From the NCBI RefSeq assembly GCF_903642095.1, contig NZ_CAHJWD020000194.1, positions 1 to 64,000 on the forward strand: a stretch of 64,000 nucleotides of DNA, in the 5' to 3' direction. The notes beneath the pieces were generated by a model that worked only from the letters and a program-made list of their open reading frames with translations, made no database searches and was not told the DNA's origin. Shown piece by piece: positions 15,800 through 23,401 of the stretch. Made by a program: the position numbers and the translations under genes. Source of the DNA: Bathymodiolus brooksi thiotrophic gill symbiont (GTDB taxonomy: Bacteria > Pseudomonadota > Gammaproteobacteria > PS1 > Pseudothioglobaceae). Numbering within the stretch: the stretch's first letter is position 1; the number at the start of each line of letters is the position of its first letter.

Positions 15800-16114
15800 T
15801 CAATAAACAATCATTGAATTGTCAATTTTTTTTGCCCAAGCATCAATGCCCCCTTGTAAATTGATAATACGCTCAAAGCCGATAGAATCAAAATAGCGAG
15901 CAACTTGCATAGAGCGAATACCGTGATGGCAAATAACAACAGTTTCTTGCGTTTTGTCTAATTGCTCAATATTGCTCATAATTTGCCCCATTGGTAACAG
16001 TGTTGAGTTTTTAAAATGGCATTTATCCCACTCCCATTGTTCACGCACATCCAGAAGTAAAGGTTGATTGTTTTTTAAATAATCATTGAGTTCGGTAGCA
16101 GACAAATCTTTCAT
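15800..16114 (-). CDS. Rhodanese-like sulfurtransferase
   Basis: 104 residues, one rhodanese domain. LLLDVREQWEWDKCHF is the N-terminal signature, the catalytic cysteine sits in VICHHGIRS, and the domain ends with LQGGIDAWA. Such proteins carry persulfide sulfur to acceptors. There is no signal peptide, so it is cytoplasmic (GlpE-like). The start overlaps the stop of the VWA gene by 4 bases (ATGA). The specific acceptor is unknown. Confidence 0.88.
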   Translation of the reverse strand: MKDLSATELNDYLKNNQPLLLDVREQWEWDKCHFKNSTLLPMGQIMSNIEQLDKTQETVVICHHGIRSMQVARYFDSIGFERIINLQGGIDAWAKKIDNSMIVY

Positions 16115-17442
16115 TGTAGTTGTATCCTAGCACCCCATGGAATGACTTCTTTGCCTTTTACCAGCCACATAACAGGGTAATTAGGCTCAATTTCAGGGAA
16201 TTTACCCTTGGCATCAGTAAAGTAAATTAACACATCGCAAACCTTATCTTGTGCATTAATATAATCAAACACAGGGTTAAAATTAGTGCCCTTGCCCCCG
16301 CCTAAAGAGGCAGGAAACTGCAATGCATCCCAAGCCTCAAAACGCCAAGGCGAATGCTCAGAAAGTTTATCATCACAGGCAATTAGAGTAATGCTGGCAC
16401 GCAAATTGGCTTTAATGGCATTCACTTCCGAGACAAACTCATCCACTTCTTCTTGTGAAATGGATCCAGAAGTGTCAATTGCGACAGTGATGTCGATTTG
16501 ATGGGATTTAAGTGCAGGCAAAATTGCCTCCCCGCTCCTGCGTGATGGGCGAGAATAGCTGAAATCATCTCGTGCAAGTGCTGACATATATTGTGCTAAC
16601 AACGATTGCCATGAGACTTGAGGCTGTAAAAAGAAATCAACCAATTTGGCAAATTCGCCCTCTAATTTGCCCGCTTGTTGAGCGATTTGTGCACTTGAAG
16701 CAAGATTTTTTTGCCATTGAGTGGCCAGTTTTTCAATCTCATCAGGACGCAAAATAGCAGGTTGTTGCGCCAAGGAAGAGGCACCGCCCTGCTCACCTTC
16801 GTTTGCCTTACTTTGGGGTTTGGGCTCTTGTTGTAATTGATCTTCACGCATACCCCCATCTGATTGCTTAGAATCGTCATTCGCTTGGTCATCGTATAAA
16901 TGCTGATCCATCGGCTCCTGATTAAGGTTGTCATCAATCATTGGGTAAATTTCTTCAGCAATCATACCTGCATATTGTTGAAAAATCGGCACATCAATCG
17001 GCGGATGAAAGCCCTCTTTAACCAGCAACGGATTGATAGCAAAATCACAAGCCAAATCCCACTTATGCTTGGTGCGATTACCTCGGCGGGCAAAATGAGT
17101 TAACGCACAATGCAAAGCCTCGTGAATTAAAACAAACTTAATTTGGTGTTTGTTAAGTGAATCGATAAACTCAGGATTGTAATAAAAACTTTTGGCATCT
17201 GTAGCACTGGTTTTGCACCACGAATCTGCTGCCACTAACGGCAAACGCAACACTAAATTACCCAAAAAAGGTCTATCCAAAATCAACTGCGTGCGTGCCT
17301 TAGTCAATTTGTTTTTAATGCCCTCTAAATCACTGTCGCTCAATAGGTTTTCTTGCGTTGATTGCACAATATCTTCACCAACTACCCTAACCTTTTCTTC
17401 GGGTGTAAGTGATTTATCTTGCCATGTTGGATATGTGTCCAT
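16111..17442 (-). CDS. VWA-like protein with a metallopeptidase-like N-terminal domain (DUF2201 type)
   Basis: 443 residues. The N-terminal domain has a zinc-peptidase-like HEALH motif (residues 107-111). A polar low-complexity linker (about 175-225, rich in Gln, Asp and Glu) and a C-terminal VWA-like domain with DTSGS at residues 323-327 follow. This two-domain design is known in proteins encoded next to a MoxR-type AAA ATPase; the matching ATPase here is at 22361-23401. The function of the pair is not established. The start overlaps the stop of the TOPRIM-like gene by 1 base (TAATG). The rhodanese gene follows with a 4-base overlap. Confidence 0.83.
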   Translation of the reverse strand: MDTYPTWQDKSLTPEEKVRVVGEDIVQSTQENLLSDSDLEGIKNKLTKARTQLILDRPFLGNLVLRLPLVAADSWCKTSATDAKSFYYNPEFIDSLNKHQIKFVLIHEALHCALTHFARRGNRTKHKWDLACDFAINPLLVKEGFHPPIDVPIFQQYAGMIAEEIYPMIDDNLNQEPMDQHLYDDQANDDSKQSDGGMREDQLQQEPKPQSKANEGEQGGASSLAQQPAILRPDEIEKLATQWQKNLASSAQIAQQAGKLEGEFAKLVDFFLQPQVSWQSLLAQYMSALARDDFSYSRPSRRSGEAILPALKSHQIDITVAIDTSGSISQEEVDEFVSEVNAIKANLRASITLIACDDKLSEHSPWRFEAWDALQFPASLGGGKGTNFNPVFDYINAQDKVCDVLIYFTDAKGKFPEIEPNYPVMWLVKGKEVIPWGARIQLQ

Positions 17443-18152
17443 TAGCTAAACTCTGTTAGGGCAGACACACCCTTATAATCTAAATAGAACAAAGGTAAGG
17501 CACTTAATACGGCTACCTCTTTATTTGGGTCAATGTGTTTTTTTAATTGAGCATTAAAAATATCGTGTTGTTCAATCACACTATTAGGATTTTGACACTG
17601 TCCATTCACTAAAAAATTGGCTTTTTTAAGGTGCTTGCTAATTAAATTCATAAAGTCATTCAAAGGTAATTCTGTTAATTCTTTAAGGCTTAAAAGGGAT
17701 AAGTTTTTATAATGACTGCCTAACTTAATTTTTGTAGTAATGTCTTTAAAATTAGAGTCAGAGTTGTTATCAGTCAAGGCTTCTAACATCGGATAACTCA
17801 GAAAAAGTTTCCCTTTGTCTGTTTCATTGTCAAATATTTTCAACATTTTTTTCATTATTTCATTGTTTGCCTCTGGCACATGTCCATCGTAGTCAAAAAA
17901 TAGATATATTCTGGCAATATCATCTCTATCATAATCTTCTGAACTTAAATCACTACACCCTTCCTTTAGCAATTCAAAAGTGTCTAAGTCTGGATCACCT
18001 GTCAATTTATTGTGTAAATCATATATGTGAGTACACCATGCAATTTCTATTCTTTTTATGTTGACAGGCAAGAGTTTAAGAAAAACATGCAGATATTGAC
18101 GCTCTTGTTTTTTTCCTTCAAATACAAATAAAGTAATCGAATTGTCTGTCAT
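17442..18152 (-). CDS. TOPRIM-like protein paired with an AAA ATPase (candidate defence effector)
   Basis: 236 residues; not a protein I can name. The N-terminus LFVFEGKKQERQY places a glutamate (E12) after a hydrophobic strand. IYLFFDYDGH places a DxD pair (D87, D89) after another. Glutamate then DxD is the metal-site pattern of TOPRIM nuclease domains. A following LFLSYPMLEAL segment is also seen in ATPase-associated proteins of this kind, as far as I recall. It joins the upstream ATPase gene and the downstream VWA gene by 1-base TAATG overlaps. Two-gene ATPase/TOPRIM systems include PARIS (AriA/AriB) and AbiL/RloAB, while OLD and GajA carry both parts in one protein. Which group this belongs to is undetermined. 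Confidence 0.55.
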   Translation of the reverse strand: MTDNSITLFVFEGKKQERQYLHVFLKLLPVNIKRIEIAWCTHIYDLHNKLTGDPDLDTFELLKEGCSDLSSEDYDRDDIARIYLFFDYDGHVPEANNEIMKKMLKIFDNETDKGKLFLSYPMLEALTDNNSDSNFKDITTKIKLGSHYKNLSLLSLKELTELPLNDFMNLISKHLKKANFLVNGQCQNPNSVIEQHDIFNAQLKKHIDPNKEVAVLSALPLFYLDYKGVSALTEFS

Positions 18153-19264
18153 TATTCAAATGCGTGGGCTTTATAAAGTTTTTGCAAATTATGTGCTTTG
18201 CGTAACTCTTGGTCGGTTAATTTATTAACAGAAGTAATTTTATTGTCATTCAAAATAAAATAACAATCAGGACGAGATAAATCGTTAGTCATAATATCGG
18301 TATTATGCGTGGTAAAAACAACCTGAACATCAATTTTCTGTAATTTTTTAATGATAAATTTAGATAAATTATGATGGTAGAACGCATCAAACTCATCGAT
18401 AAATACAAAAGAGGTTTTATTAGATTGAATGCGTTGATACCAGTAATAAAACAAAGCCATAGCCCTTGTCCCTTGTGAAGCGATATCAAAAAAACTAATA
18501 GAGTCATCGCCTCCGAAGTCAAAAACTATTTTTTCTTCATTGTTTATATCTTTAGCAATCCCTAACTTACACTTAATACCTGCCTCATTAAGGAATTTTT
18601 CAAAATCAACAACATGCCCTTGATCAATAATATCTTTATCTATTGCTTTTGAGCCATTTTCCAGCCCTAAATAAGCACTATGCTCTAGTGAGCGGAAAAA
18701 CAGCATTTTATTAATAAAATCAAAAAATTGATTAAATACAGCGTTGTTACCATTGTTTTCTAATATAGTATTTTCTTTAACATACTTAACAATCGATAAA
18801 TTAACATTGGCAATCTCTTGATTTAGACTTTCTGCACCTTGTAGAGAAAAATTTGCATTCTTTTTTTTGCCAGTGCGTTTTACCGATAAAACTTCTTTCT
18901 TATTGATAGATAAAAACTCATCTAATAGAATTTCGTGATTGGTTTTTGAATAACGATAAACCACTTCGTTTTGTTCAAATTTAAAACAATATTCAAATTC
19001 TGCATAAGGAATGCTAATTGGCTTGGTTAAATAATTCTGATAAAAACTCCCTTTGCTCTCATTGTCAGTTAAATGCTGGACAATATCAAATATCGCAAAG
19101 CCTAAATTAGATTTTCCAGAAGCGTTAGCACCGTAGACAATCGCAGTTTTAACAACGCCTTCTTTGACAGATTGAGGGTTAAACTGATAGTCGCTAGCAG
19201 TAAAATCAAATGTTAGTTTTTTGTTAAAATTTTTAAAGTTGGTAACGCTAAATTTTTCTAACAT
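18152..19264 (-). CDS. AAA ATPase of the OLD/ABC-like group (AAA_15/AAA_21), candidate defence sensor
   Basis: 370 residues. It has an N-terminal RecF/SMC-like strand (FSVTNFKNFNKKLTFDF) and Walker A GANASGKS (residues 45-52). A signature-like SQGTRAMALFYYW, Walker B FVFIDEFDAF and an H-loop VVFTTHNTDIM follow. This is the ABC-type ATPase fold without a membrane part, common in OLD, RloA, AriA and GajA defence proteins. No nuclease domain follows the ATPase part; the TOPRIM-like function appears to be in the next gene. It is the first gene of the long minus-strand run down to batD. The upstream 223 bases are shared with the divergent TPR gene and contain a hairpin. Confidence 0.78.
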   Translation of the reverse strand: MLEKFSVTNFKNFNKKLTFDFTASDYQFNPQSVKEGVVKTAIVYGANASGKSNLGFAIFDIVQHLTDNESKGSFYQNYLTKPISIPYAEFEYCFKFEQNEVVYRYSKTNHEILLDEFLSINKKEVLSVKRTGKKKNANFSLQGAESLNQEIANVNLSIVKYVKENTILENNGNNAVFNQFFDFINKMLFFRSLEHSAYLGLENGSKAIDKDIIDQGHVVDFEKFLNEAGIKCKLGIAKDINNEEKIVFDFGGDDSISFFDIASQGTRAMALFYYWYQRIQSNKTSFVFIDEFDAFYHHNLSKFIIKKLQKIDVQVVFTTHNTDIMTNDLSRPDCYFILNDNKITSVNKLTDQELRKAHNLQKLYKAHAFE

Positions 19265-19322
19265 AGTTATTTATTTTTTTGCATAAAAAAAGGTCATTCT
19301 ACCCTAAAAACAAAATGCCGTT

Positions 19323-19350
19323 AAAAAAATACGGATGACCCCGTATGTTT
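19323..19350 (-). terminator. Hairpin with T-run on the minus strand, possible terminator or attenuator
   Basis: ATACGG (19329-19334) pairs with CCGTAT (19341-19346) around a 6-base loop. Read on the minus strand the stem is followed by a run of seven T. It lies 59 bases upstream of the ATPase start, so it could terminate transcription entering from the right or attenuate the ATPase/TOPRIM operon. On the plus strand the stem is followed by GTTTTTG. Confidence 0.45.
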
Positions 19351-19487: not shown

Positions 19488-22250
19488 ATGGAAAAAAACA
19501 ACAAGAAAAAAAAGAGGAAGGCTGGCCCTTTAGGTGAACAACAACATATAAAAAATGCTGAATATTACAATAATAAAGGCGTGTATTTTATCAATAAAAA
19601 GCGTTATGACAAGGCTCAACAATGTTTTGAAAAAGCTCTGTTACTTGATCCAAATCATACATATGTACATAGCAATATAGGTCAATTATTTCAAGAAAAA
19701 AAGTGTTTTAAAGAAGCGCAACAACACTTTGAGAAAGCTTTGTCACTTGATCCAGAACAAGCGAATGCGAGGTGGAATTTGTCCTTGATGCAATTGACTC
19801 TAGGTAATTTTAGCCAAGGTTGGGAAAACTACGAAGCTCGCTACCATAAGAATAAACAAAACTGGAAAGTTACCCCACTTAACATTAGCATTCCTCATTA
19901 TCAAGGAGAAGGTGTTAGGGGTAAAAATCTACTTATTTGTTTTGAACAAGGCTTCGGCGATTCAATTCAATGTATTCGGTTTTTACCTTTGTTAAAAACC
20001 CAAAAAGGCGTTAAAGATATTATTTTGGTCTGCCAAGCACCACTTAAAAAACTCTTTTCAAGCATAACTTGTATTGACCATCTGCTTGATGAGAATGAGT
20101 TTAAAAAAGCTGAAATTCATGGCATTGATCATTGGATGTTTATCATGAGCCTACCCTTGTGCTTTAATGTTACGCTAGAAACGCTGCCTCAAAAATTGCC
20201 TTATTTATCCACTTCCCAAGCAGCTAAAAACAAATGGAAGGACAAACTCCCTCAAGGTTTTAAGGTGGGTTTGGTTTGGAAAGGTAGCACTATCCATGTC
20301 TCCGATAAACAGCGTTCACTTGCTTCAATTAAATTATTAAAACCATTGTGGAAGATTTCAGAAAACATTAGTTTTATTAGTTTACAAAAAGGTGCAGGGG
20401 AAAAGGAGGCTCAAAATCCACCAGCAGATCAACCTTTGATTCACCTAGGCAATGAAATTCAAGACTTTTCTGACACCGCTGCCATTGTTTCTCAACTGGA
20501 TTTGGTTATTTGCGTTGATACTGCCATCGCCCATCTTACTGGTGCACTTAACATTCCTTGCTGGGTTTTAATTCCCGATTACAATGCTGATTGGCGTTGG
20601 ATGATTGACAGGGAAGACAGTGTTTGGTATCCCAAGGTGATGAGATTATTCAGGCAAACTGCTAGTGGCAATTGGGATGAAATCATTACCAAAGTAAGTG
20701 AAGCTTTAACTGCGTTAATTAACAACCCGATAACAGCCTCTCAAACAATTAAACATATAGAAAAAACAACAACGGCAGATGAATTTAACACCGATATTCT
20801 TCAACTTTACAACCAAGGTGATATTAAAGCGGCGCTACAACTTAGTAAACAAGCCTTAAAGTTGTTTCCAAAAAATGCAAACTTGCTAGAAAATGCAAGT
20901 GGGTTTGCGGGTATGCTAAATGAGACCACATTGGCAAAAAAATATGCTTTAAAAAGTTTGGAAATTAACCCAAATAACGCAAATACTCATAACAATCTGG
21001 GGCTATTATATAAGATACAAAAACGCTTTGATAAGGCGCAACAATACCTTGAGAAAGCGTTATTACTTGATCCAAATCATAGTGAAGTGCACAACAATAT
21101 GGGTTTATTATTTCAAGAACAGCAGCAGTTTGACAAGGCACAACAATGTTATGAAAAAGCTTTAAAGATTGACCCTAGCCATATTAATGCTCACAATGAA
21201 TTGGCTAATTTATTGAAAACTAAAAAGCAATTTTCTGCGGCACATGCACATTATAAAATAATCTTAAAACTTGATCCAAATAATGCTGGCGCAAAATGGA
21301 GTATATCTTTATTGCAATTAATAACTGGTGATTTTAAGCAAGGTTGGGAAAATTATGAATATCGATACCACAAAGACAAAAAAAACAAAGTTGTAACGAT
21401 GCCTGATATTTCTTCACCTCAATATCAAGGTGAAGACTTAAAAGGCAAAAATATTCTCGTCTATTTTGAACAAGGTTTAGGTGATGAAATTCAATTTATC
21501 CGTTATTTACCTTTACTCAAAACCCAAAAAGGCGTTAGGGGCATTATCTTGGTATGCAAACCTCCACTTAAAAAACTCTTCTCAAGTATGAGTTGCATCG
21601 ACTATATATTTGATAAAGATGAAATTAACAAAATAAGCATTCAAAAACTAAACTATTGGGTATTTATCATGAGTTTGCCCTTGCATTTTAATACTAGAAT
21701 ACAAACTATTCCTAACCAACTGCCCTATTTATCCTCTCCAAAAATAGAACAAGACAAATGGAAGGATAAACTCCCTCAAGGCTTTAATATTGGTTTAGTT
21801 TGGAAAGGCGAATCCAGATATAGAGACGATGTTAGTCGTTCCTTGCCTTCAATCAAAACCCTAAAGCCACTCTGGCAAGTTGCAGAAAATATTAACTTCA
21901 TCAGTTTACAAAAAGGGGCAGACGAAGAGGTGCAAAACCCACCAGCAGACCAACCTTTAACCCACCTAGGTGATGAAATTCAAGACTTCGCCGACACCGC
22001 TGCTATCGTCTCTCAACTGGATTTGGTTATTTGTGTTGATACTGCCATTGCCCATCTTGCTGGCTCACTTAACATTCCTTGCTGGGTATTGCTTTCTGAT
22101 TGCAATTCCGATTGGCGTTGGATGGTTAACAAAGAAAGCAGTGCCTGGTATCCTGAGATAATGAAATTGTTTAGGCAAACCACTAATGGCGATTGGGGCG
22201 AGGTAGTTACCAAGATAGCTACAACCTTAACCCGCAAAATAAGCGAGTAA
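19488..22250 (+). CDS. TPR-glycosyltransferase (GT9-like) protein with internal duplication
   Basis: 920 residues. Layout: lysine-rich start; two TPRs (about 24-92); a GT9/heptosyltransferase-like domain (about 93-410); further TPRs (about 432-602); a second GT9-like domain (about 603-918). The two halves repeat with an offset of about 508 residues (QGWENYE at 110-116 and 618-624; LDLVICVDTAIAHL in both). VCVDTAIAHL-type motifs resemble the nucleotide-sugar site of GT9 enzymes. No signal peptide, so it probably acts in the cytoplasm on a protein or glycan acceptor bound by the TPRs. Target and sugar are unknown. It is divergent from the ATPase gene and convergent with the AAA gene. Confidence 0.8.
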   Translation: MEKNNKKKKRKAGPLGEQQHIKNAEYYNNKGVYFINKKRYDKAQQCFEKALLLDPNHTYVHSNIGQLFQEKKCFKEAQQHFEKALSLDPEQANARWNLSLMQLTLGNFSQGWENYEARYHKNKQNWKVTPLNISIPHYQGEGVRGKNLLICFEQGFGDSIQCIRFLPLLKTQKGVKDIILVCQAPLKKLFSSITCIDHLLDENEFKKAEIHGIDHWMFIMSLPLCFNVTLETLPQKLPYLSTSQAAKNKWKDKLPQGFKVGLVWKGSTIHVSDKQRSLASIKLLKPLWKISENISFISLQKGAGEKEAQNPPADQPLIHLGNEIQDFSDTAAIVSQLDLVICVDTAIAHLTGALNIPCWVLIPDYNADWRWMIDREDSVWYPKVMRLFRQTASGNWDEIITKVSEALTALINNPITASQTIKHIEKTTTADEFNTDILQLYNQGDIKAALQLSKQALKLFPKNANLLENASGFAGMLNETTLAKKYALKSLEINPNNANTHNNLGLLYKIQKRFDKAQQYLEKALLLDPNHSEVHNNMGLLFQEQQQFDKAQQCYEKALKIDPSHINAHNELANLLKTKKQFSAAHAHYKIILKLDPNNAGAKWSISLLQLITGDFKQGWENYEYRYHKDKKNKVVTMPDISSPQYQGEDLKGKNILVYFEQGLGDEIQFIRYLPLLKTQKGVRGIILVCKPPLKKLFSSMSCIDYIFDKDEINKISIQKLNYWVFIMSLPLHFNTRIQTIPNQLPYLSSPKIEQDKWKDKLPQGFNIGLVWKGESRYRDDVSRSLPSIKTLKPLWQVAENINFISLQKGADEEVQNPPADQPLTHLGDEIQDFADTAAIVSQLDLVICVDTAIAHLAGSLNIPCWVLLSDCNSDWRWMVNKESSAWYPEIMKLFRQTTNGDWGEVVTKIATTLTRKISE

Positions 22251-22360: not shown

Positions 22361-23401
22361 CTAATCAAACAAAGTATCAGCGATTGCACCAGCCCAGTTA
22401 GCAAATTCTGGAATAGTAAAAATTTCTTCACCGATGGCGCGCTGCATATCGGATACCAGCATTACACCGAGTTCTTTTTGTGGAAAATTACGGGCAAAGT
22501 TAAGAATATTACCCCAAATCTTTTCGGCATTGTCCTTACCTTTAACGCTAATTGCCCTACCAACTAAGGCGGAACAAATAGCGTATTGCAAATCAATAGC
22601 ATCAGGAATTGACACAGATTCTCCATTTACAATAGCATCCAAATCTGGCAAATCTTCTAAATGTTCAATAAAAGTTGCCACTTCAACACCCGCCACTTCG
22701 CCAACACAGGCACTGGCGGCAGCTCTAAACAAATTCAAATTATTTTCAAATTTTTGTAAAGCACGATGGGTGAACGCCCAAGTTCTAGGAGAGGGAAAAG
22801 CCACGGGATTATGTGCAGGGTCAAATTCAAACAAGTGTTCGGGGCGATAACGCAAAAAGCCAATAATACGCTCGTCAATATCATTTTTATACGCCCAAGC
22901 AACCCAATCGTCTAAATTCACTTCCAATTCATAATGAGAAAAACGGTTGGACAAAGGGGCAGGCATGGAATAAGTTACGCCACGGTCGCCTTGACGATTA
23001 CCTGCGGCAAAAATTACCCAGCCATCAGGCACCACATAATCACCCAAACGCCTGTCTAAAATCAATTGATAAGCAGCAGCGGAAACACTGGGGGGTGCCG
23101 AAGTGATTTCATCTAAAAATAAAATACCTTGCTTTCCATGGCGTTTTTCATCAGGCAATAGTGATGGAATCGCCCAATCAACTTGCTCACCATTTTTAAA
23201 GGGAATCCCACGCAAATCACTCGGCTCCATTTGTGATAAGCGAATATCAATCATATTTACATTATGTTCACTGGCAATTTGGGAGATGATTTGAGATTTA
23301 CCAATTCCAGGTGCACCCCATAACATAACGGGTGTGTGATGACCACAAAGAACAGACTTAAACTCTTGATTTAAAATAACACTAACTTGCTCTGGACGCA
23401 T
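22361..23401 (-). CDS. MoxR-type AAA+ ATPase, predicted partner of the DUF2201-type VWA protein
   Basis: 346 residues. Walker A is GAPGIGKS (residues 29-36) and Walker B is GILFLDEIT (about 92-100). The sensor region AAGNRQGDRG and a conserved SMPAPLSNRFSHYEL stretch follow. This branch is different from the MoxR at 14177-15115 and is usually encoded beside a VWA-like metallopeptidase-fold protein, as at 16111-17442. In this window the two are about 4.9 kb apart on the same strand, with the ATPase/TOPRIM pair and the opposite-strand TPR gene between them. It should use ATP to remodel a VWA-bound client; the client is unknown. Confidence 0.87.
   Translation of the reverse strand: MRPEQVSVILNQEFKSVLCGHHTPVMLWGAPGIGKSQIISQIASEHNVNMIDIRLSQMEPSDLRGIPFKNGEQVDWAIPSLLPDEKRHGKQGILFLDEITSAPPSVSAAAYQLILDRRLGDYVVPDGWVIFAAGNRQGDRGVTYSMPAPLSNRFSHYELEVNLDDWVAWAYKNDIDERIIGFLRYRPEHLFEFDPAHNPVAFPSPRTWAFTHRALQKFENNLNLFRAAASACVGEVAGVEVATFIEHLEDLPDLDAIVNGESVSIPDAIDLQYAICSALVGRAISVKGKDNAEKIWGNILNFARNFPQKELGVMLVSDMQRAIGEEIFTIPEFANWAGAIADTLFD

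What the first reader, a model, noticed from the sequence alone, without database searches (positions are those of the whole stretch)
17442..19264. Two-gene ATPase/TOPRIM-like module fused by 1-base overlaps to a VWA/MoxR operon
An OLD/RloA-like ATPase is followed by a 236-residue protein with a TOPRIM-like metal pattern (E12; D87 and D89), and then the VWA protein, both junctions TAATG. Known ATPase/TOPRIM defence systems exist, but this pair is shorter than AriA/AriB as I know them. Coupling to a VWA metallopeptidase-like gene has not, to my knowledge, been described as a unit. The VWA and its AAA partner might be part of the same response.
Basis: partly seen in the sequence, partly recalled or inferred. 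Interest (0 to 1): 0.72.

Follow-up and report, generated by a model that had tools for sequence, protein, structure and literature searches.

The report
Self-contained defence gene pair with operator
Two genes in a bacterium related to deep-sea mussel symbionts form a portable candidate anti-virus module that has slipped in front of an unrelated gene, and across several bacterial phyla the module carries the same short DNA switch, which suggests that it controls itself.

Summary
The genes are as described: 370-aa ATPase (18152-19264, -), 236-aa protein (17442-18152, -), DUF2201 VWA protein (16111-17442, -), two TAATG junctions. The pair is PADLOC's candidate defence system PDC-M12 (A 2.9e-150, B 1.5e-74). 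B is RloB/TOPRIM-like by profile comparison and by the topology of a confident model; a fold search did not confirm it. The pair resembles AbiL/PARIS.

The VWA link is local. Within one genus the pair, or its remnant, sits directly before VWA in 5 of 12 genomes. In 88 loci from other genomes, plasmids and phages, B is found with A in 85, and VWA in one, a duplicate of a genus member. One sponge-symbiont copy has whole A and B genes in a defence island, with only scraps of VWA and MoxR.

The unexpected result is a 17-bp dyad, CCGTA-N7-TACGG, at the pair's promoter: exact in 62 of 91 loci, within one mismatch in 76 of 91 (shuffles 0.01 and 0.1), and in 0 of 33 sister-family loci. The window's copy (19318-19334) has one mismatch. 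It looks like a private operator bound by the pair itself; that is inferred, not shown.

The parts
18152..19264 (-). PDC-M12A: ABC/AAA_21-type ATPase, 370 aa (P-loop GANASGKSN, Walker B FVFIDEFD, TTHNT; motif names recalled)
17442..18152 (-). PDC-M12B: RloB/TOPRIM-like protein, 236 aa; E12, D87, D89, H91, E124
19318..19334 (-). Conserved dyad CCGTA-TTTTTTT-AACGG (family consensus CCGTA-N7-TACGG), proposed operator; the only CCGTW-N7-WACGG site found in this genome
19296..19324 (-). Promoter-like site of the pair: -35 TTAACG (overlaps the dyad's right arm), 17-nt spacer, -10 TAGAAT; conserved in the genus copies
16111..17442 (-). DUF2201 putative metallopeptidase/VWA protein, host operon gene; not part of the module
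22361..23401 (-). MoxR2, the AAA gene that precedes VWA, directly or beyond NnrS/hemerythrin, in relatives without the pair; separated here by the inserted genes
19488..22250 (+). TPR/glycosyltransferase-9-like gene in reverse orientation between MoxR2 and the pair; also in G011 and in part in G007

Best explanation
The pair is a self-contained, horizontally mobile PDC-M12 module. The ATPase (A) is probably the sensor and restraint, and the TOPRIM-like protein (B) the nuclease effector, as in AbiL and PARIS. The transferable unit is promoter plus A plus B. Its promoter carries a private 17-bp dyad operator, CCGTA-N7-TACGG. Because the operator accompanies the pair across phyla and I saw no recurring third gene, A, B or their complex most likely binds it and autoregulates. 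In this genus the module settled between the MoxR2 and VWA genes of a host operon and moved with scraps of its flanks. The VWA gene is a bystander, which here probably now reads from the module's promoter because MoxR2 lies beyond a reversed gene. Shown: module content, dyad, its association with the pair and its position. Inferred: defence role, nuclease activity, self-binding, promoter capture.
For: PDC-M12A and B models match. B is RloB/TOPRIM-like. B is found with A in 85 of 88 loci, VWA/MoxR2 in 1 of 88. No neighbour family occurs in more than 4 of 136 sampled neighbour proteins. Copies lie on small plasmids, on a Vibrio filamentous phage, and in a DISARM/type I RM island. MoxR2 and VWA scraps flank the sponge-symbiont copy, whose genome gave no VWA match. 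Dyad: 62 of 91 exact, 76 of 91 within one mismatch, six other spacings 0-2 of 91 at that level; 0 of 33 sister loci. In 398 genomes the only two exact sites with an A- or T-run centre are at PDC-M12 promoters. It stands at group-typical distances from promoter elements, and the same 17-mers occur in both orientations. dN/dS is 0.13 for A and 0.16 for B.
Against: I found no published activity of a PDC-M12 member. Foldseek gave no significant PDB match for B. Pfam shows no dedicated DNA-binding domain in A or B, so the operator's binder is unknown. Five of 6 Campylobacterota loci lack the dyad within one mismatch. The loose form CCGTW-N7-WACGG occurs in 38 of 58 related genomes, most of them without the pair, and 78 of 89 viral stretches with an exact dyad lack PDC-M12A, so the dyad is not exclusive. 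In this genus the pair and VWA have kept the same order in several genomes, so a local benefit of the linkage is not excluded.
Confidence: 0.72

Rival explanations
1. ATPase, TOPRIM-like protein, VWA and MoxR form one response unit.
For: Tight overlaps in the window and the same order in 4 genomes of the genus, plus a remnant in a fifth.
Against: VWA/MoxR2 in only 1 of 88 further loci, a duplicate genus member. VWA follows MoxR2 without the pair in relatives. In G007 the pair is broken while VWA is whole and about 100% identical. In L081 the pair is whole and VWA and MoxR are scraps. Caveat: only 59 of 84 loci have 2 kb or more on both sides.
Confidence: 0.07
2. The dyad is read by a widespread host regulator, and the pair is merely one of its targets.
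For: A and B have no dedicated DNA-binding domain in Pfam. Looser or exact dyads also occur away from the pair.
Against: One CCGTW-N7-WACGG site in the whole window genome, at this promoter. In 398 genomes the two run-centred exact dyads stand at PDC-M12 promoters. The same sequence accompanies the pair in several phyla.
Confidence: 0.15
3. The dyad acts as RNA: a 5-bp stem and 7-base loop, the geometry of a tRNA anticodon arm (recalled), as target mimic or decoy for a tRNA-cutting B.
For: Stem and loop sizes fit, and AriB, a TOPRIM effector, cuts a tRNA anticodon stem (passages of PMC12409363).
Against: Promoter elements lie downstream, so it is probably not transcribed from the pair's own promoter. 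Several one-sided changes break the pairing and I saw no compensating one in the listed sites. The same 17-mers are used in both orientations.
Confidence: 0.08
4. The pair is not anti-phage but a toxin-antitoxin-like or plasmid-maintenance module.
For: Small plasmids carry it. ATPase/TOPRIM_OLD pairs behaved as toxin-antitoxin pairs in neutralisation assays (passages of PMC10440598).
Against: It occurs in a defence island and on a filamentous phage. The two roles are not exclusive.
Confidence: 0.25

Closest known systems
PADLOC PDC-M12 (candidate system)
   Same: Both proteins match its A and B models over nearly full length.
   Different: The copy here sits in a host operon. I found no published description of PDC-M12 or of the dyad.
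AbiL (AbiLi/AbiLii) and RloA/RloB
   Same: ATPase followed by a TOPRIM/RloB-type protein; A matches the AbiLi model at 3.2e-42, B aligns with RloB.
   Different: AbiLi-like and RloAB loci tested lack the dyad (0 of 33). An RloAB pair lies elsewhere in the same genus.
PARIS (AriA/AriB)
   Same: Separate ATPase and TOPRIM effector genes; the ATPase of a Vibrio phage copy is annotated Paris_II.
   Different: No sequence match and no significant structural match of B to the PARIS complex; B shorter than AriB (AriB length recalled). Trigger and target unknown.
RptR-regulated defence island
   Same: Palindromic operator at the promoter of a defence locus (passages of PMC12255303).
   Different: RptR is a separate repressor gene with a TAGCTA site; here I saw no recurring regulator gene.

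Membership tests
PDC-M12 | Adjacent A and B genes matching the PADLOC models | tested here: met
   PDLC04426 2.9e-150, PDLC04430 1.5e-74; 1-base overlap
PDC-M12 | Anti-phage activity | not testable with these tools
   Candidate status only; needs a bench test
TOPRIM | Glu after strand 1 and DxD after strand 3 of an alternating alpha/beta fold | tested here: met
   Model pLDDT 91.2; strand 6-11 then E12, strand 79-87 ending at D87 with D89 following; residues conserved; the topology rule itself is recalled
TOPRIM | Significant fold match to a solved TOPRIM protein | tested here: not met
   0 matches at E <= 0.001 among 723 at E <= 10; PARIS 8ux9_A rank 3, E 0.16
PARIS | B homologous to AriB | tested here: inconclusive
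   No PARIS chain among sequence hits in PDB; insignificant structural hit
RloB/AbiLii | RloB domain (PF13707) | tested here: inconclusive
   No hit for the window protein; weak hits in 18 of 55 homologues, best 2.6e-4; hhalign probability 90.6
Three-part ATPase-TOPRIM-VWA system | Recurring adjacency outside one lineage | tested here: not met
   1 of 88 loci, and that one is a duplicate member of the same genus

The most novel reading that the evidence does not exclude
The ATPase/TOPRIM complex is itself a sequence-specific DNA-binding autoregulator. It occupies CCGTA-N7-TACGG at its own promoter, and release on infection would both free the nuclease and derepress the operon, so sensing, effector and transcription control lie in two genes, with an operator kept nearly to the base across phyla.
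Probability: 0.5. Interest if true: 0.75.

Novelty: new variant of a known kind. Interest (0 to 1): 0.6.

Why it matters
Several ATPase/TOPRIM defence pairs are known, but I found little on how their expression is controlled (listings). A 17-bp operator conserved across phyla, on plasmids and on filamentous phages gives a direct bench handle: a DNA probe that should capture the regulatory state of the complex. It is also a sequence signature that helps find PDC-M12 loci. The locus also shows that tight gene overlaps in one genome do not prove a shared function, and how a defence module enters a host operon, moves with scraps of its flanks and may take over transcription of its neighbours.

Tried and rejected
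VWA coupling was tested by neighbourhood survey and rejected. Frameshifts of VWA and MoxR2 in G004 looked like evidence that the pair does not need them, but they look like single-base shifts, some near short runs, in an assembly rated 87% complete, and may be sequencing errors, so I do not use them. Searches of the PDB by sequence gave nothing useful for B: with the profile one hit, to Cas10/Csm1 at 0.0038, taken as chance. The RNA-hairpin reading of the dyad is disfavoured. The neighbour census used 136 of 243 neighbour proteins (140 drawn at random, 4 then left out for the size limit; 5 loci left out beforehand) and has no control, so it supports only the lack of a constant third partner. 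A tree placing the sponge-symbiont copy inside the genus clade has weak support (82/88), and that contig may be a binning error. A terminator-like hairpin beside the dyad was not pursued. Of 89 viral stretches with one of three exact dyad forms found pattern-first, 11 had PDC-M12A just downstream (two of these were already known loci and several are near-copies) and 78 did not. The loose pattern in relatives had a capped listing. In one search the reversed control pattern occurred in 18 of 398 genomes, against 8 for the dyad pattern, so the pattern as such is not enriched genome-wide. One dN/dS row (VWA, G000 against G002) gave no value.
Full report
What is there. The window holds, on the minus strand, a 370-aa ATPase (18152-19264), a 236-aa protein (17442-18152) and a 443-aa VWA protein (16111-17442), with TAATG at both junctions. 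Downstream follow rhodanese, dUTPase_2 and MoxR genes, then DUF58, DUF4381 and VWA genes. The VWA protein is DUF2201_N plus DUF2201. Between them lies a reversed TPR/glycosyltransferase-9-like gene (19488-22250).

What the pair is. Both proteins match PADLOC's candidate system PDC-M12: A at 2.9e-150 and B at 1.5e-74. The next named family for A is AbiLi at 3.2e-42. Pfam gives AAA_21 for A and nothing for B. Across 55 homologues of B, D87 is invariant and E12 and D89 at least 90% conserved. Eighteen of 55 show weak RloB matches and one a Toprim match, at E up to 1. A profile comparison with five RloB proteins, four of the same genus and one of the same class, aligns FVFEGK with IVCEGK and FFDYDGH with VFDKDGH (probability 90.6, E 1.3e-6). 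The AlphaFold2 model (mean pLDDT 91.2, pTM 0.90) puts E12 after the first strand and D87/D89 at the end of the strand at 79-87. By the recalled TOPRIM topology that fits. Against this, Foldseek found no PDB match at E <= 0.001; the PARIS complex chain 8ux9_A ranked third at E 0.16. So the TOPRIM assignment rests on motif, profile and topology, not on a fold match.

The VWA link. The VWA gene was sought in 58 genomes and found in 36. PDC-M12A in its close form (E below 1e-140) occurs in 4 of the 58, all of the window's genus; 10 of 58 have some match at E <= 0.001. I mapped 32 relatives' loci. The common order is MoxR2 - NnrS - hemerythrin - VWA - rhodanese, or MoxR2 directly before VWA (NnrS and hemerythrin confirmed by Pfam in G004 only). 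Among the 12 genomes of the genus examined, the pair is whole in 4 (G000, G002, G004, G011) and a remnant in one (G007), each time directly before VWA; 7 have none there.

Why the linkage is incidental. Of 88 further loci (the 80 best of a genome scan, plus plasmid, phage and viral records, some near-identical), B is found in 85 and VWA/MoxR2 in one, L082, which is G004 again. Flanks are 2 kb or more on both sides in 59 of 84. Two natural cases separate the genes. In G007 the pair is broken while the VWA protein is whole and about 100% identical to the window's, rounded. In L081, a contig labelled Methylococcales symbiont of the sponge Hymedesmia, A and B are whole, a MoxR2 3' scrap and a VWA 5' scrap flank them, no VWA matched in that genome, and the neighbours include DrmA, DrmB and type I RM genes. 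The empty answer is weak by itself, because the search had no positive control. G004 carries a degraded MoxR2 end beside the leader although its MoxR2 lies about 2 kb away, and G002 carries a truncated extra VWA start before the pair. The module therefore seems to have moved with scraps of its flanks.

Mobility. Related pairs lie on about 4-kb Escherichia plasmids, on Acinetobacter and Pectobacterium plasmids, and on Vibrio phage records, one of which is a filamentous phage whose annotator labelled A as Paris_II. Among 136 sampled neighbour proteins no Pfam family occurs in more than 4 and no PADLOC family in more than 2. Between the window and G011, dN/dS is 0.13 for A and 0.16 for B against 0.02-0.05 for MoxR2, lipA and VWA, with similar dS. 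That suggests purifying selection, faster protein change, and vertical descent between these two genomes.

The dyad. The leader before A contains CCGTATTTTTTTAACGG (19318-19334). The form CCGTA-N7-TACGG is found within 120 nt upstream of A exactly in 62 of 91 loci, within one mismatch in 76 and within two in 80. One duplicate (L082) was dropped; other near-identical loci were kept. After dropping six near-copies, 71 of 86 remain within one mismatch. Six other spacings give 0 to 2 of 91 at one mismatch and up to 8 of 91 at two. Shuffles give means of 0.01 exact and 0.1 within one mismatch. Outside these stretches the loci, 1.37 Mb in all, hold 2 exact sites and 25 within one mismatch. By group, within one mismatch: Pseudomonadota 12 of 12, own genus 4 of 4, Bacteroidota 36 of 41, Bacillota 13 of 17, Campylobacterota 1 of 6, records of the plasmid collection 4 of 5, viral and phage records 3 of 3, single others 3 of 3. 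Of the misses, L145 has an exact dyad just outside the 120-nt limit, and others have two-mismatch or N6 forms. Sister families: 0 of 30 AbiLi-like and 0 of 3 RloAB loci within one mismatch. Of three PDC-M12A loci from a separate sample, two are exact and one has one mismatch; the last, L203, carries the same 17 bases at the same distance as L086 and may be the same locus. On an 80-sequence tree the dyad is present in 68 of 80 and needs 8 changes, so it is probably ancestral to this part of the family.

How specific it is. In the window's genome CCGTW-N7-WACGG occurs once, here, against 15 for the reversed control. In 58 relatives that loose form occurs in 38, mostly in genomes without the pair (capped listing, in which the centres away from the pair are mixed). 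In 398 genomes the strict form with an AT-only centre occurs 8 times, against 18 genomes with the reversed control. Its only two sites with an A- or T-run centre are the promoters of PDC-M12A in G718 and G759; the other two PDC-M12A genomes of that sample, G000 and G482, carry one-mismatch forms. Pattern-first in viral contigs, 11 of 89 stretches had PDC-M12A just downstream. So the dyad predicts the system well at promoters but is not exclusive to it.

DNA rather than RNA. The dyad lies at group-typical distances from promoter elements. TAnnTTTG occurs within 45 nt downstream in 30 of 71 loci, 27 of them at 13-19 nt, against a shuffled mean of 2.5. In all 13 Bacillota loci that have the dyad, TATAAT or TATACT starts at 29 nt. 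In most Pseudomonadota a -10-like hexamer with up to two mismatches starts at about 14-19 nt; this last has no control. The same 17-mers occur in both orientations (15 and 11; 7 and 8; 5 and 4). Several loci have one-sided changes that break the pairing. In the window the right arm overlaps the -35 hexamer TTAACG, with TAGAAT 17 nt on. Promoter-like sites as such are no more frequent in the region than chance (25 found, 25.7 expected); the weight comes from conservation.

Mechanism proposed. A senses and restrains, B is the nuclease, and one of them or the complex binds the dyad. The roles of A and B are transferred from PARIS and AbiL (passages of PMC12409363 and PMC10440598), not shown here. 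Self-binding is inferred from conservation across phyla and the lack of a recurring third gene. In the window, VWA and the genes after it probably read from this promoter, because the MoxR2 side is cut off by a reversed gene. In G007 the leader, dyad and promoter survive although A and B are broken, which fits promoter capture but also fits recent decay.

Literature. The name PDC-M12 gave 0 papers. The three dyad sequences searched gave 0 papers. Searches for ATPase/TOPRIM autoregulation and for PADLOC candidates listed no paper whose title or abstract start describes this operator (listings only). RptR, read in passages, is a different, dedicated repressor.

Verdict. The reported gene order is real and its VWA coupling is most likely incidental. 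The pair is a member of a known candidate family. The conserved private operator is the new element.

Noticed in passing
L044:7132-7304 (G002): An inverted-repeat, MITE-like element lies between a truncated extra VWA start and the pair's leader; related stretches (68-81%) occur in the regions of G002, G004, G005 and G007.
   Followed up: partly
window 19488-22250; L043:5360-8089; L042:13361-14258: A 920-aa TPR/glycosyltransferase-9-like gene with two similar halves sits reversed in the MoxR2-VWA gap in G000 and G011 and in part in G007.
   Followed up: no
L048:8957-10608, L045:4216-6337 and other relatives: NnrS and hemerythrin genes between MoxR2 and VWA in many relatives, lost in others, suggesting that the host operon has to do with nitric oxide (Pfam on G004 only).
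   Followed up: partly
L036, L037, L038, L163-L168, L170: A separate RloA/RloB pair elsewhere in the same genus; in the window's genome only a contig-edge piece of RloB was found.
   Followed up: partly
L117 (record titled Marinifilum caeruleilacunae, 4.5 kb contig): Its dyad region has the same variant core as the Escherichia plasmid copy L075, so the contig may be a stray plasmid.
   Followed up: no
L079 (NZ_CP084075.1): A 2.1-Mb Fusobacterium record filed as a plasmid carries the pair and dyad; its size suggests a chromosome.
   Followed up: no
L206, L234, L240, L242, L265, L278, L280, L283: Viral contigs with the dyad shortly after a CTGGAAGA...TCTTCCAG-like hairpin, without PDC-M12A; may be terminators of a phage group.
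   Followed up: no
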